Shown piece after piece: positions 40,401-45,499 of a stretch of 64,000 nt of DNA. Each line of letters starts with the position of its first letter. Position 1 is the stretch's first letter. Both the position numbers and the translations under genes were made by a program. The notes beneath the pieces are model-generated. The model searched no databases, was not told the DNA's origin, and saw only the letters and a list, made by a program, of their open reading frames with translations. Source of the DNA: Selaginella tamariscina (Eukaryota > Streptophyta > Lycopodiopsida > Selaginellales > Selaginellaceae); contig PUQB01000438.1 of assembly GCA_003024785.1 (NCBI GenBank), positions 1 through 64,000 on the forward strand, given 5' to 3'.

Positions 40401-43184
40401 AACAAGTGCAGCCTTGTTTGTTCCGTAAGGAATCTGCATAACAAACAAAGAACACAAGTTACATACGTTTCGAATTTGATATATGATGAACGTGTACGTG
40501 TATTCGCACAGATTGAACAATAATATATGCATATATATCACCTCTGTAATGACAATTGCAGAACGGGGTGTTTTTCCTTCCAGCTCCTCAGTAGTTGTTT
40601 TGCCTCTAACGGTGACTTGTCCACGTCCTGTTCGGTATGCATTTAGTATTCTGTGTAGCATATTACTGAAGTCAGAGAACATTACAAAGATATGCACACA
40701 CCCACACACACACACACATACACATTACAGACATTCACGACTGTACACGTAGATATATCTACATGTATATGTAAACCCACCCTGAGACTCCCAATATTTG
40801 TCCTCCAGTTGGAAAATCTGGACCAGGCATGTGCTCCATCAACTCTTCAATCTACATGGAAAAAGAATATACGCATACGTGTGAGTGTGATTAATATTAC
40901 AAATTACTAGTGAACTGCATTTGAAACCAAAGTTTGCATTGTATTTCTCTACATAAGCAAAGATGAACACATAGGGGTTTGGGGTGTGTGTATGGATGGA
41001 CGTATGCACATATATATGTGCAAAACAAAATGACATAGTATGCAACATACCGTTGCGTTGGGATTCTTTATAAGGGCACAAAGGGCATCCACCACCTCGC
41101 AAAGATTGTGTGGTGGTATATTTGTGGCCATTCCAACCTGCAGAAGCAAATACATTCAATAGATTAAATTTAAACTTACATAAGATGTATACGTAAACAC
41201 GTGTGTGTGTGTGTGAACAATATACTAATATACTCTGCTTTTACTATTTAGAAGCTTATCATTAAGAAAATAGTTTGATTTTCCATAACTTTAAGTACTT
41301 ACAGCAATTCCTGAAGCCCGTTTATAAGAACATTTGGAAGTCGTGCGGGCATGACAACTGGCTCTTTTTGTGAGCCATCAAAATTTGGAAAAAATCGACC
41401 TGCAAAATAATGTATACATGGACGCGCGCGCACACACAAACACAAACCTACACAGACGAATTACTATGAAATAAAATTACCGTATCTAGATCGAGGTCGG
41501 ATAGTAACATCGCTTCTGATAAAGGCTGGAATCAAGAGTTTATAAGACATTAGTGAAGAATCGCATTTATATTATTTTACTGTTTTGATGTGTATGTAGT
41601 CACAATTGTGATGTGTATGTATATAGCAGATTTATTTATATATACACAAGTAATACAAGTACTGTGTATGAATATCCTTAACGTTCATAAATCAATGTGA
41701 ACATACACAGGCGTGTGTGTGTGTGTGTGTCAACTTACTCCGAGCCTGCATTCTGTGTATCTCATTGCTGCAGCAGGGTCCCCATCAATGGAGCCGAAAT
41801 TACCATGGCCACTAATAAGCGGGAACGTAATGAAAAACTCTACAATTTTAGCGTGTCAAATACAAAAGAAAGAACAAAAAGTTAAAAACGGCAAACTTAC
41901 AAAAGTTTACCTGCGCAAGACGAACAAGAGCATCATACACAGCGAGTCTCCGTGCGGGTGAAATTTTCCCAGAACCTACGGACACAAACATATGTTTATG
42001 TAGTACCCCAGATGTGTGTGTGTGAGAGAAAGAGAAAGTATTCAGAAAAGCCACAGTAACGCAATTTATTGTAAACACCTCAAGTTGAGTTTCAAATGAG
42101 CTGTATAAAACAATGTATATAGAGCTGGAGTAATACCAACTAGTTCAGAGAGTAAGTATGTGTATGTGTTTAAAATGAATTAGTTAAAATATATAAAGGT
42201 CTGTGCAGTAGTATAGGCATATAAACGTATCACGAGGTACATAGTATATGTGTGTACATGTACGTAAAAAGATTACAAATATGAAACAAATGGAAGAATA
42301 TATAATCTCAGCCCTATACATACACAAGATACGCATAAAGGAAAGTAATTCTTGTTCTTACCTCACCAACAACACGTGCGCATTTTTTATATGGCTTTTT
42401 TGATGACAAACCCAGTTCATGCATGGCGTATCTGCGGAAAATTCACATGATAGTATTATATACGAAACAAATTAAACTGAGATGGTCCAGTGTGTATAAA
42501 CATTTTGTGCAGATAGATATTATAAAATATAAACCATACAGGATGCGACGATGTACAGGCTTGAGGCCATCACGGATATCCGGGAGAGCTCTACCCACAA
42601 TGACGGACATCGCATAGGATAAGTAAGAATCGGAAGCCTCCTTTTGAAGCTCAACAGTCACAACGCGAGTTGTATCTTCTCGAACAGCATCCGAAGCAGC
42701 CCCATTCTGCGGCATCTTCCGACCCATTTGAGCAGAGACACTGGTGAAGCTTCGCAACTGGTTAGGAGCCGGATTCCAGGAACCCAAATGCGGATTTTGC
42801 CCGATATACAACCTCGGACACCCGATATCATGTCCAAGATACCGGCTTGCTAGAAATCCTATAAAAACAAATTTTTGAGCAGCAAGGCAAAACAGACACA
42901 AAAATGTAGATTTTGGTGCAGTTACCCCAGATTGTGTGCATTCTAACACAAAATCCCGATTTTTTACGGATTCTCGTATCGACAATCAACATAAAAAGGC
43001 GGATTTTGATGCGAGAATGGATTTCACTACACAACATACATACATTGAATGCGGCAAGCTTACCGGATCGATTGCGCACGGCGATCAAAGATGAACATGG
43101 GGAAATCATCGAAGAAGACATCTGATTCCTCACAGCAGCCTTGCAAACGTGAAGCGCACGTCTCGGCACGAGCGCGCTTTCCAT
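34442..43184 (-). CDS. GYRA: DNA gyrase subunit A, organellar
   Basis: Twenty-seven exons on the minus strand, about 940 codons, the expected size. Exon 1 (43064-43184, [20 protein letters not shown]) and the start of exon 2 (42535-42858) form a plastid/mitochondrial transit peptide. Mature protein: [20 protein letters not shown]; exon 41911-41975 with [10 protein letters not shown]; exon 41739-41839 with the catalytic tyrosine in [26 protein letters not shown] block 41303-41399; AYRTGRG 40542-40650; coiled-coil tower; then a C-terminal beta-pinwheel with a GyrA-box-like QRRGTTGK (37385-37537). GyrA cuts and reseals DNA to introduce negative supercoils in organelle DNA. Several exons contain one-base shifts (42362 junction, 41911-41975, 41303-41399, and two compensating shifts in 37385-37537). 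Confidence 0.95.
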
Positions 43185-43249
43185 AGAGGAAGAGAATGTG
43201 CCCTATGAACGCCTGCCCCAATCCGCCATAGCCTTTCGCACTTCCCAAG

Positions 43250-43272
43250 AACCCTAACCCCTAACCCCTAAA
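43250..43272. promoter_or_regulatory. Telo-box pair in the divergent gyrA/unknown-gene promoter
   Basis: AACCCTAACCCCTAACCCCT followed by AAACC sits 66 bp upstream of the gyrA ATG and 94 bp upstream of the decayed copy of the divergent gene. The same motif is kept in the right block at 44565-44583. Confidence 0.75.
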
Positions 43273-43365
43273 CCATCAACTTATTTTGCCGTCGATAATT
43301 AAAATCTGTTCTGTCACACACGACACTCTGACACGAAGCAGCAAGAGTAGTTAGGGCCAGGTACC

Positions 43366-43860
43366 ATGGTGACTTGGAGGATACCTTAGTTTTCTAAGGA
43401 GAGATTTCTTCCTTAGCACCAACTGGGCATCTGCTGAGCTACTACTAGACTTTTTGGAATCGTCCTGCTTCTCCGGTGATCGGTGTACTTACACTGTCCG
43501 AGGTAAGACTTACACCTATCCTTAAGAGGAACATCTGAACGCCAGTACTGGTTAAAGTGGTGCCCTTCCGACTGGTACAGGAGGTTGACGTTCCTCTCTG
43601 ATCCCCAGTACCAAGCTGAGGCCGCAGATGTTATCTATCTCGTGAACAGGCTTTTCTGGGTAGCAATCCAGTACATTGTTCAGCAGTCGAGGATGCCTAC
43701 AAAGGTGCGAAGGTGAACAGGGGAAACATGTTCTGGAACTGCTTTGCGAACCAGGTGGTCTCTGTCCGGAACCAGGTTGAACAGAAGAGAACCAGCATTC
43801 CATGCGACTTTGGAAAGTCGTTGTACTGCTGACAGAACGAACACAGGTAGAGAAGAAGCG
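43366..43860 (+). pseudogene. Decayed copy of the unknown 44602 gene
   Basis: Begins ATGGTGACTTG like the intact gene but has lost several internal segments (for example the part coding RNGATLVCEDFPNYKF and part of LIESLLNLPRG) and carries frameshifts. Homology stops near 43860 in CGAACACAGG. It cannot encode the protein. Confidence 0.9.
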
Positions 43861-43914
43861 TGCTAGGCGGTTCATATGTGCCCTCACCCTCAGACCGTGA
43901 TAGTAAATAAATAA

Positions 43915-44515
43915 ATTCATAAACTGAGATGGTCTGGGTCTAAACATAAACCATACAGGATGCGACGATGTACAGGCTTGAGGCCATCGCGGATATCCGG
44001 GAGAGCTCTACCCACAATAACGGACATCGCATAGGATAAGTAAGAATCGGAAAAGCTCAACAGCCACAACGCGACTTGTATCATCTCGAACAGCATCCGA
44101 ATGTGCGGCATCTTCCGACCCATTTGAGCAGAGACACTGGTGAATCTTCGCAACTGGTTAGGCGCCCGATTCCAGGAACCCAAATGCGGATTTTGCCCGA
44201 TATATAGCCTCGGACACCCGGCATCGTGTCCAAGATACCGGCTTGCTTCCTACGAAAAACAAACCTTTGAGGTTCAACCGGAAAATAAACAGCAAGGCGA
44301 GTTTGGTGCAGATACCCCAGATTGTGTCAAAATACCGATTTTTATGAATTCTCATATCGACAAGCAATAGAAAACAGTCATCAAAATGCGGAGATGCGAG
44401 AATGGATTTCGCTATACATTGAAGGCGGAAAGCTTACCGGATCAACTGCGTACGGCGATCAAAGATGAACATGGGGATCGAAGAAGACTCACAGCAGCCT
44501 TGCAAACGTGAAGCG
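43915..44515 (-). pseudogene. Decayed 5' copy of gyrase A
   Basis: Matches gyrA exon 2, intron 1 and exon 1: [33 protein letters not shown] and MGRKMP are still readable. It has deletions (after SDSYL and around [10 protein letters not shown]), a lost start codon (the TTTCCATAGAGG segment is absent at about 44533) and no downstream exons. It sits upstream of the intact unknown gene. Confidence 0.92.
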
Positions 44516-44564
44516 CACGCCTTGGCACGAGCGAAGAGAATGCGCGCCTTTTACACTTCCCAAG

Positions 44565-44583
44565 AACCCTAACCCCTAACCCT
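44565..44583. promoter_or_regulatory. Telo-box pair upstream of the unknown gene
   Basis: AACCCTAACCCCTAACCCT 19-37 bp before the ATG at 44602. It is the duplicate of 43250-43272 and so belonged to the original bidirectional promoter. Confidence 0.75.
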
Positions 44584-44601
44584 AGTTAGGGCTTAGGTAC
44601 G

Positions 44602-45499
44602 ATGGTGACTTGCCGCAACGGAGCGACCTTAGTATGTGAGGATTTCCCCAATTATAAGTTTTCTGAGAGCCACCTTAGTTTTCTAAGGAGGATACATCTG
44701 GAAGATTTCTTCCTTAGCCCAAACTGGGCATCTGCAGAACTCGAGGAAGGAGTGCTACTAGACTTTTTGGAGTCGTCCTGCTTCTCCGGTGATCGGTGTA
44801 CTTACACTATCCGAGGTAAGACTTACAGCTTCTCAATAGACTTGATTGAGTCCCTGTTGAACCTGCCGAGAGGAACATCTGAACGACAGTACCAGTTGAA
44901 GTGGTGCACTTCCGACTGGTACCGGAGCTTGACGTCCTCTCTGATCCCCAGTACCAAGCTGACCAAGGACGCCGCAGATGTTATCTATCTCGTGAACAGG
45001 GCTTTTCTGGATAGCAACTGTCGCCTCTACCAGTACATTGTTTCGGCAGCTGAGGATGCCTACAAAGGCGTGAAGGTGAACTGGGCAAACATGTTCTGGA
45101 GCTGCTTCAAGAATCAGGTGGTCTCCGTCCGGAACCAGGTTGAACATAAGGGAACCAGCATTCCATGCAACTTCTGGAAAGCCGTTATACTGCTGACGGA
45201 ACGAACACAGGCCGGTGCAGTGACGGACAGTATACTAGAGAAGCATGCCATATATATAGAGGAGTATGTTGACGATGTGAAGAAGTACGTGACCATGCTG
45301 AAAGACAGAGAAGATCATATCGAGGAGCATGGGCTGGAGAACGAGGGCGTATCCGAGCGCTGTGGAGAAGACAATGCAGCAGGAGCAGAAGATTGAGAAT
45401 TTGCGGGTAGAGCTTCAAGGCAAAGAAGAGGAGATTAAAATTCTGAAGGGACGGTTGCTGGCAAGCAATTGGCGCAGTTACTCGTCAATATTTAAATAA
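44602..45499 (+). CDS. Unrecognised single-exon protein, plant-transposon-like domain with coiled-coil tail
   Basis: An intronless open frame of 264 codons (to 45396) starting MVTCRNGATLVCEDFPNYKF. The centre reads YTIRGKTYSFSIDLIESLLN, then LPRGTSERQYQLKW; this RGK-x-hydrophobic-x-FS...LLxLP pattern recalls the putative plant transposon protein domain found in many uncharacterised plant ORFs, a weak resemblance from memory. After the stop, the +1 frame continues from about 45360 as TMQQEQKIENLRVELQGKEE then EIKILKGRLLASN to a stop at 45499, clearly a coiled coil. The original protein was probably about 297 residues and one base was lost or gained near 45340-45370. No signal peptide or membrane segment. 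Function unknown. Confidence 0.7.

What the first reader, a model, noticed from the sequence alone, without database searches (positions are those of the whole stretch)
42474..45499. Tandem duplication of a divergent gene pair with reciprocal decay
The arrangement gyrA 5' end / telo-box promoter / unknown gene occurs twice in the same order. In the left block gyrA is whole and the unknown gene is wrecked; in the right block gyrA has lost its start and most exons while the unknown gene is open. Each block has kept the other partner of the pair. The effect is that one bidirectional promoter has become two one-sided promoters, each now facing a pseudogene.
Basis: seen in the sequence. Interest (0 to 1): 0.82.

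Follow-up and report, generated by a model that had tools for sequence, protein, structure and literature searches.

The report
One duplication junction, two broken genes
In what looks like a spikemoss genome, a short stretch carrying the start of an organellar gyrase gene and most of an unknown neighbouring gene was copied in tandem, and the way the copy was cut left one whole and one broken version of each gene, which is an ordinary outcome and needs no special division of labour.

Summary
The repeat is real. Block L (42448-43865) and block R (43898-45251) align over 1160 paired bases with 83 substitutions. In coding parts, gaps of 5 nt or more are 6 in R and 0 in L for gyrA exons 1-2, and 0 in R and 8 in L for the unknown gene (p = 0.0003). 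The opposite decay is real.

Homology stops inside gyrA intron 2 on the left and inside the unknown frame on the right, and the blocks meet at a short junction (43866-43897). That one junction truncates unknown-L and gyrA-R together; the outer halves stay joined to their own 3' ends.

The assembly (300.7 Mb; size fits the published Selaginella tamariscina assembly, PacBio/Falcon) seems to carry many 1-2 nt indel errors. gyrA 'whole' needs care: its letters show single-base frame breaks but no in-frame stop.

No relative of the unknown gene was found outside this locus. Promoter function, transcription and the pair in other species are untested. Ordinary partial tandem duplication with relaxed decay; interest low to moderate.

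The parts
34511..43184 (-). gyrA (plant organellar DNA gyrase subunit A), the copy with its full exon set; 3' end not determined because the scan stopped at 34501
   Evidence: Pfam PF00521 exon matches and frameshift-tolerant spliced alignment to six bacterial GyrA proteins
43064..43184 (-). gyrA exon 1 (N-terminal presequence), L
   Evidence: translation and GT-AG borders
42540..42858 (-). gyrA exon 2, L
42432..42539 (-). gyrA intron 2, L; holds the left breakpoint of the repeat unit (42448, or about 42473 if the weak end match is chance)
42448..43865 (.). block L of the tandem repeat
43185..43365 (.). 181-nt spacer between the proposed gyrA ATG and the unknown-gene ATG in L; telomere-like (telo-box) stretch at 43250-43274
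   Evidence: sequence
43366..43865 (+). unknown gene, L: broken copy; lacks pieces of 25, 28, 12, 12, about 31, 7, 11 and about 21 nt relative to R, and the whole 3' end
43866..43897 (.). 32-nt junction of unassigned origin between the blocks; ends unknown-L and gyrA-R together
   Evidence: 43866-43931 has no significant match to R 45206-45900; its right part weakly matches intron 2
43898..45251 (.). block R of the tandem repeat
43898..44536 (-). gyrA 5' fragment, R: part of intron 2, exon 2 (43957 to about 44252), intron 1 and exon 1 (44438 to about 44536), lacking pieces of 11, 10, 5, 5, 10 and 15 nt in the exons; both candidate start codons missing
44565..44584 (.). telo-box stretch of R, 17 nt before the unknown-gene ATG
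   Evidence: sequence
44602..45396 (+). unknown gene, R: open frame of 264 codons plus stop; possible continuation in another frame to 45499
   Evidence: no relative in Pfam, PDB, viral or prokaryotic contigs and only a chance-level NCBIfam row

Best explanation
A head-to-head pair, organellar gyrA (minus strand) and an unknown gene (plus strand), suffered one direct tandem duplication. The copied stretch ran from gyrA intron 2 to about codon 216 of the unknown frame. Such a unit cannot carry either gene whole. Placed in tandem, the left gyrA start stays joined to its own downstream exons and the right unknown gene stays joined to its own 3' end. The two inner halves meet at a short junction and are truncated from the first moment. 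The inner, useless copies then lost start codons and frame, mostly through small deletions, while the outer copies were kept. Shown: the repeat, its ends, the junction, the one-sided distribution of gaps in the coding parts. Inferred: that the gaps are deletions, that breakpoints and truncation are the same event, that the outer copies are functional, and the age. The repeat is about four times more diverged (8.6% in introns) than a pair of presumed haplotigs of the same assembly (2.0% over the part compared). With a recalled rate of about 7e-9 per site per year that is very roughly 5-10 million years.
For: Homology ends within intron 2, 16 nt short of exon 3, and within the unknown frame. Only 32 nt lie between the two ends (at most about 64 if the weak end match is chance), with no significant similarity to the missing 3' end. 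Gaps of 5 nt or more in coding parts: 6 to 0 and 0 to 8, p = 3.3e-4. gyrA exon differences are enriched at codon position 3 (11/130 against 8/258, p = 0.026), as expected if one copy is constrained; R has one in-frame stop among 125 gyrA codons compared. No other copy of either half reported in the assembly. PF00204 (gyrase B type) exons occur on C609 and C1304, so a gyrase partner may be retained; that they are gyrB and not another type II topoisomerase was not tested.
Against: No outgroup was available, so an insertion cannot be told from a deletion and the undivided ancestor is inferred. The unknown gene shows no significant codon-position signal (18/163 against 23/331, p = 0.12; 13 synonymous and 22 non-synonymous changes among 156 codons compared, 60 more set aside for gaps), so constraint on its R copy rests on the open frame and the gap pattern alone. 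The gyrA letters carry frame breaks. The two blocks have 3.7 times more gaps of 5 nt or more per substitution than the haplotig pair (24:83 against 35:450, p = 2e-5), which simple neutral decay does not predict.
Confidence: 0.78

Rival explanations
1. Two complete pairs were made by a larger tandem duplication, and one later deletion across their border removed the 3' end of unknown-L and the later exons of gyrA-R together.
For: Gives the same present-day structure and the same single junction.
Against: Needs two events instead of one; the junction stretch has no significant similarity to the unknown 3' end. I did not search the junction against later gyrA exons one by one; one search's best match elsewhere in the window was not tested for significance.
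Confidence: 0.12
2. Selected uncoupling: a bidirectional promoter was split by duplication so that gyrA and the unknown gene could be controlled separately, with complementary loss of the unused halves.
For: Each surviving gene has its own spacer with a telo-box, and the spacers now differ by 29 and 80 nt.
Against: Truncation at a single junction explains the pattern without selection for uncoupling; no expression data; bidirectional activity of the spacer is an assumption.
Confidence: 0.05
3. Assembly artefact: the two blocks are two haplotypes (or an uncorrected read) placed in tandem by the assembler.
For: A review table row for S. tamariscina reads 150 and 300.73, PacBio, Falcon, which I take as genome size and assembly size in Mb (PMC8558194). 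Near-identical contig pairs and indel errors are present. Three stretches of this region that I searched have no second full-length place.
Against: Blocks differ by 7.2% substitutions overall against 2.0% in the haplotig stretches compared, 0.7% in the first 8 kb of them. In coding parts the gaps of 5 nt or more are split perfectly by gene, which errors would not do. A second haplotype would continue into gyrA exon 3 instead of stopping in intron 2.
Confidence: 0.05

Closest known systems
Partial tandem duplication leaving truncated duplicated pseudogenes (plant pseudogene review PMC5187791, title and abstract start seen in a search listing)
   Same: Direct tandem copy with breakpoints inside genes; truncated copies decay.
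   Different: Here one junction truncates two different, oppositely oriented genes at once.
Duplication-degeneration-complementation (subfunctionalisation; recalled concept)
   Same: Complementary losses in two copies, so both must be kept.
   Different: The parts divided are two separate genes, and by inference the inner halves were already broken at the junction; no mutual rescue is needed.
Plant divergent gene pairs and bidirectional promoters (PMC2772851, PMC4222868; titles and abstract starts seen in a search listing)
   Same: Head-to-head genes with a short spacer (181 nt between proposed ATGs in L).
   Different: No activity shown here; the R spacer is shorter.
Telo-box near start codons of plant genes (PMC3212954; passages seen)
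   Same: Telomere-like motif close to start codons; the paper reports this in Selaginella moellendorffii too, for cytosolic and mitochondrial ribosomal protein genes.
   Different: The paper finds no enrichment for chloroplast ribosomal protein genes (slightly above background in S. moellendorffii); here the motif lies beside a gyrase gene and carries CCCCTAA units.

Membership tests
Partial tandem duplication with truncated copies | Direct repeat of adjacent segments in the same orientation | tested here: met
Partial tandem duplication with truncated copies | Repeat ends fall inside genes | tested here: met
   left end in gyrA intron 2 (42448 to about 42473), right end in the unknown frame (R 45251)
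Partial tandem duplication with truncated copies | Undivided single pair in a relative (ancestral state) | not testable with these tools
   no other plant genome in the collections offered
Duplication-degeneration-complementation | Both copies initially complete, then complementary loss | tested here: inconclusive
   present structure shows one shared truncation junction; a complete ancestor of each block cannot be excluded without an outgroup
Duplication-degeneration-complementation | Divided expression of ancestral subfunctions | not testable with these tools
   no transcript data
Bidirectional promoter | Head-to-head starts less than 1 kb apart | tested here: met
   181 nt between the proposed ATGs in L; true transcription starts unknown
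Bidirectional promoter | Transcription in both directions | not testable with these tools
   no expression data
Organellar DNA gyrase subunit A | GyrA homology over nearly the full length | tested here: met
   PF00521 exons and spliced alignment, for example residues 2-873 of the 905-aa query L015
Organellar DNA gyrase subunit A | Uninterrupted reading frame | tested here: inconclusive
   single-base frame breaks, no in-frame stop on the chosen path; frame changes without introns also in HSP70 loci of this assembly
Organellar DNA gyrase subunit A | Organelle targeting | not tested
   an N-terminal extension before the conserved domain is seen; no targeting prediction was run
Plant transposon protein domain (Transposase_32; resemblance of the unknown protein recalled, no call) | Match to the Pfam family | tested here: not met
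   no Pfam match at E up to 10
Plant transposon protein domain (Transposase_32; resemblance of the unknown protein recalled, no call) | Dispersed multicopy in the genome | tested here: not met
   only L and R found; next best match E = 2.33

The most novel reading that the evidence does not exclude
A gene without known relatives, perhaps lycophyte-specific, was held in a divergent pair with organellar gyrA, and a duplication across both genes freed each from the other's promoter. The locus would then be a natural experiment in taking a bidirectional promoter apart, with the two spacers already diverging (29 and 80 nt of the L spacer are absent from R).
Probability: 0.1. Interest if true: 0.45.

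Novelty: new member of a known kind. Interest (0 to 1): 0.22.

Why it matters
It shows that a pattern that looks like selected reciprocal loss can follow from where one duplication was cut: a direct tandem copy with one end in each of two divergent genes leaves the outer halves whole and the inner halves broken. It also warns that single-base frame breaks in this assembly are poor evidence of pseudogenes. If the unknown gene proves real, its open R copy beside a wrecked L copy is the best clue that it is under selection.

Tried and rejected
Haplotypes placed in tandem: rejected on divergence, gap pattern and junction. gyrA as a pseudogene: not favoured. Frame breaks are single bases without an in-frame stop. 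The HSP70 locus on C838 shows three frame changes without an intron against an open HSP70 frame of the same genome (that this locus is not itself a pseudogene was not tested). A near-identical HSP70 contig pair differs by 2 substitutions and 11 gaps of 1-4 nt in 3453 aligned bases, and the gyrB-like pair by 57 substitutions and 45 gaps, 41 of them of 1-4 nt, in 7836, which points to indel errors. Unknown gene as a transposon protein: no Pfam match, not dispersed. Unknown gene from a virus or prokaryote: in viral contigs 10 and in genome contigs 23 stretches matched a pattern and none was a relative; such scans reach close relatives only. NCBIfam gave one row at E = 0.15, far below its cut-off. 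Excess of 10-12 nt gaps (10 of 24 gaps of 5 nt or more): improbable under simple length models but chosen after seeing it, and not significantly different from the haplotig pair (6 of 35, p = 0.07); left as a curiosity. Date: rough, the rate is recalled. Papers: seven searches listed nothing on this locus as far as titles and abstract starts show; six of the lists were capped at 12 or 15 rows. One search (S. tamariscina + gyrase) gave 4 papers, judged irrelevant from title and abstract start.
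Full report
What the window is. The window is contig C769:1-64000 of an assembly of 300,702,823 bases in 1391 contigs. Telomere repeats are of the TTTAGGG type: 345 exact (overlapping) matches of four units, 0 for the reversed control. Plastid-type psaA copies are present. The psaA locus L118 has 53% GC, and its translation scores highest in the PDB against PsaA chains 6l35 and 8htu (that these are moss structures is recalled). A review table row for Selaginella tamariscina reads 150, 300.73, PacBio, Falcon, which I take as genome and assembly size in Mb (PMC8558194, passages seen). Selaginella plastomes have 51-55% GC and extreme C-to-U editing (PMC6590440, passages seen). 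I take the species as S. tamariscina; the tools name no species, so this is inference.

The repeat. One search found the repeat as several direct-repeat families, and searches aligned it. Block L is 42448-43865 and block R is 43898-45251. There are 1160 paired bases and 83 substitutions (7.2%): introns 18/210, gyrA exons 19/388, spacer 5/68, unknown gene 41/494. Genome searches with gyrA 5' DNA and with unknown-gene DNA report only these two places (only the best candidates are scored). The unknown protein's next best match is E = 2.33.

Which copy is broken. Counting gaps of 5 nt or more, gyrA exons 1 and 2 have 6 missing in R and 0 in L; the unknown frame has 0 missing in R and 8 in L (Fisher p = 3.3e-4). 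Counting gaps of every length the split is 6:0 and 3:12 (p = 0.0015). In introns and spacer there are 10 gaps of 5 nt or more, 7 missing in R and 3 in L, so the one-sidedness is a property of the coding parts. Both candidate gyrA start codons fall in R gaps. The frame offset of L against R changes nine times along the unknown frame, though 1-nt steps may be assembly errors. The R unknown frame is open for 264 codons; its stop-to-stop length of 268 was reached by 0 of 2000 simulated sequences of the same dinucleotide make-up.

Where the repeat ends. On the left, similarity reaches 42448, inside intron 2 of gyrA (42432-42539), 16 nt short of exon 3. The last stretch of it is weak; strong homology starts at about 42473, still in intron 2. 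On the right, similarity ends at L 43865 / R 45251, about codon 216 of the unknown frame. Between the blocks remain 32 nt (43866-43897). The stretch 43866-43931 has no significant similarity to R 45206-45900 (91.5% of 200 shuffles score as high) and a weak one to the intron 2 flank (4.5% of 200), which places the left end at 42448. So one junction is at once the end of unknown-L and of gyrA-R.

Mechanism. A direct tandem copy of a segment with one end in each of two divergent genes must give this picture. The left copy's gyrA start remains attached to exons 3 onward; the right copy's unknown gene remains attached to its 3' end; the inner halves are truncated at birth. Later small losses in the inner halves are what loss of constraint predicts. 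Independent reciprocal decay of complete pairs is not required. A larger duplication followed by one deletion over the border gives the same structure and cannot be excluded without an outgroup.

State of gyrA. A frameshift-tolerant spliced alignment to six bacterial GyrA proteins (of 22 kept from 80 loci) covers gyrA from exon 2 to the end of the scanned stretch without an in-frame stop on the chosen path, but with frame breaks. All six place one at 41945, near 37420 (37423 in five, 37414 in one) and near 37392 (7-10 nt from an inferred donor); others lie within a few bases of inferred splice sites and may be misplaced borders, or were placed by only some of the queries. The HSP70 locus on C838 shows three frame changes without an intron. 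A near-identical pair of HSP70 contigs differs by 2 substitutions but 11 gaps of 1-4 nt in 3453 bases; the gyrB-like pair differs by 57 substitutions and 45 gaps in 7836. Single-base indels in this assembly are thus weak evidence of decay. PF00204 exons on C609 and C1304 suggest a gyrB, untested against other type II topoisomerases.

Artefact check. The assembly seems to hold some loci twice. I compared 28.0 kb of C609 with C1304. Three matched stretches were kept; shorter, overlapping or displaced matches and about 4.8 kb without a kept match were dropped. Over 22,722 aligned bases there are 450 substitutions (2.0%) and 38 gaps of 5 nt or more, 35 after leaving out simple repeats; the first 8 kb alone show 0.7%. 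L and R are more diverged, and their coding gaps are sorted by gene, so they are unlikely to be two haplotypes. Three stretches of the region (gyrA 5' end, unknown gene, 46640-48000) each have one full-length place. The blocks carry more gaps of 5 nt or more per substitution than the haplotig pair (24:83 against 35:450, p = 2e-5). Part of this may be that constrained copies accept fewer substitutions; the rest is unexplained.

The unknown gene. No match in Pfam (E up to 10), PDB (E up to 10), viral or prokaryotic contigs; in NCBIfam (E up to 1) one chance-level row. Its substitutions show no significant third-position excess (p = 0.12), and 22 of 35 changed codons are non-synonymous among 156 compared, with 60 set aside for gaps, as expected when the L copy is free. 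For gyrA, 125 codons compared gave 8 synonymous and 8 non-synonymous changes and 1 stop in R, with 21 set aside. A coiled-coil-like stretch continues in another frame to 45499. It may be the true 3' end behind an assembly indel, or the R copy may itself be damaged.

Promoter claim. The spacer of L (181 nt between ATGs) contains AACCCTAACCCCTAACCCCTAAACC (43250-43274); R keeps AACCCTAACCCCTAACCCTA (44565-44584) but lacks 29 and 80 nt found in L. Telo-boxes near start codons are reported in land plants including S. moellendorffii (PMC3212954, passages seen). Whether this spacer drives transcription both ways is not tested.

Verdict. Real repeat, real one-sided decay in the coding parts, ordinary cause. 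New member of a known kind.

Noticed in passing
window 34511-43184: gyrA has single-base frame breaks in conserved exons without in-frame stops; probably assembly indels, to be checked before any claim about gyrase loss.
   Followed up: partly
window 42448-45251: 10 of 24 gaps of 5 nt or more between the blocks are 10-12 nt long; in a haplotig pair 6 of 35 are (p = 0.07). Seen after the fact.
   Followed up: partly
window 45302-45499: Coiled-coil-like frame (AVEKTMQQEQKIENLRVELQGKEEEIKILKGRLL) downstream of the 264-codon unknown frame, in another frame. Pfam gave only rows below cut-off for it.
   Followed up: no
window 45815-46153: Dispersed repeat beside the unknown gene: partial matches of 66-81% identity on many contigs (40 candidates scored of 68).
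   Followed up: no
window 45554-45648: A 46-nt sequence occurs twice with starts 49 nt apart, 87% identical.
   Followed up: no
window 1477-2061: Reverse-transcriptase RNase H domain (PF17917) on the minus strand, so probably an LTR-type retroelement.
   Followed up: no
window 32345-33058: LysM receptor-like ectodomain (NFP/LYK and LYK4/5 LysM models) in one long open frame.
   Followed up: no
L118 and L119 (C536:67404-71750, C605:298119-302464): Two adjacent PF00223 genes (psaA and presumably psaB) in the same order on two contigs, the first scoring the same on both; C1082 holds a further match. Plastid genome or nuclear insertions, not settled.
   Followed up: no
G000 C165:19089-29435: TTTAGGG arrays recur about every 5 kb (near 19.1, 24.4 and 29.3 kb), an interstitial or subtelomeric pattern (listing cut).
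   Followed up: no
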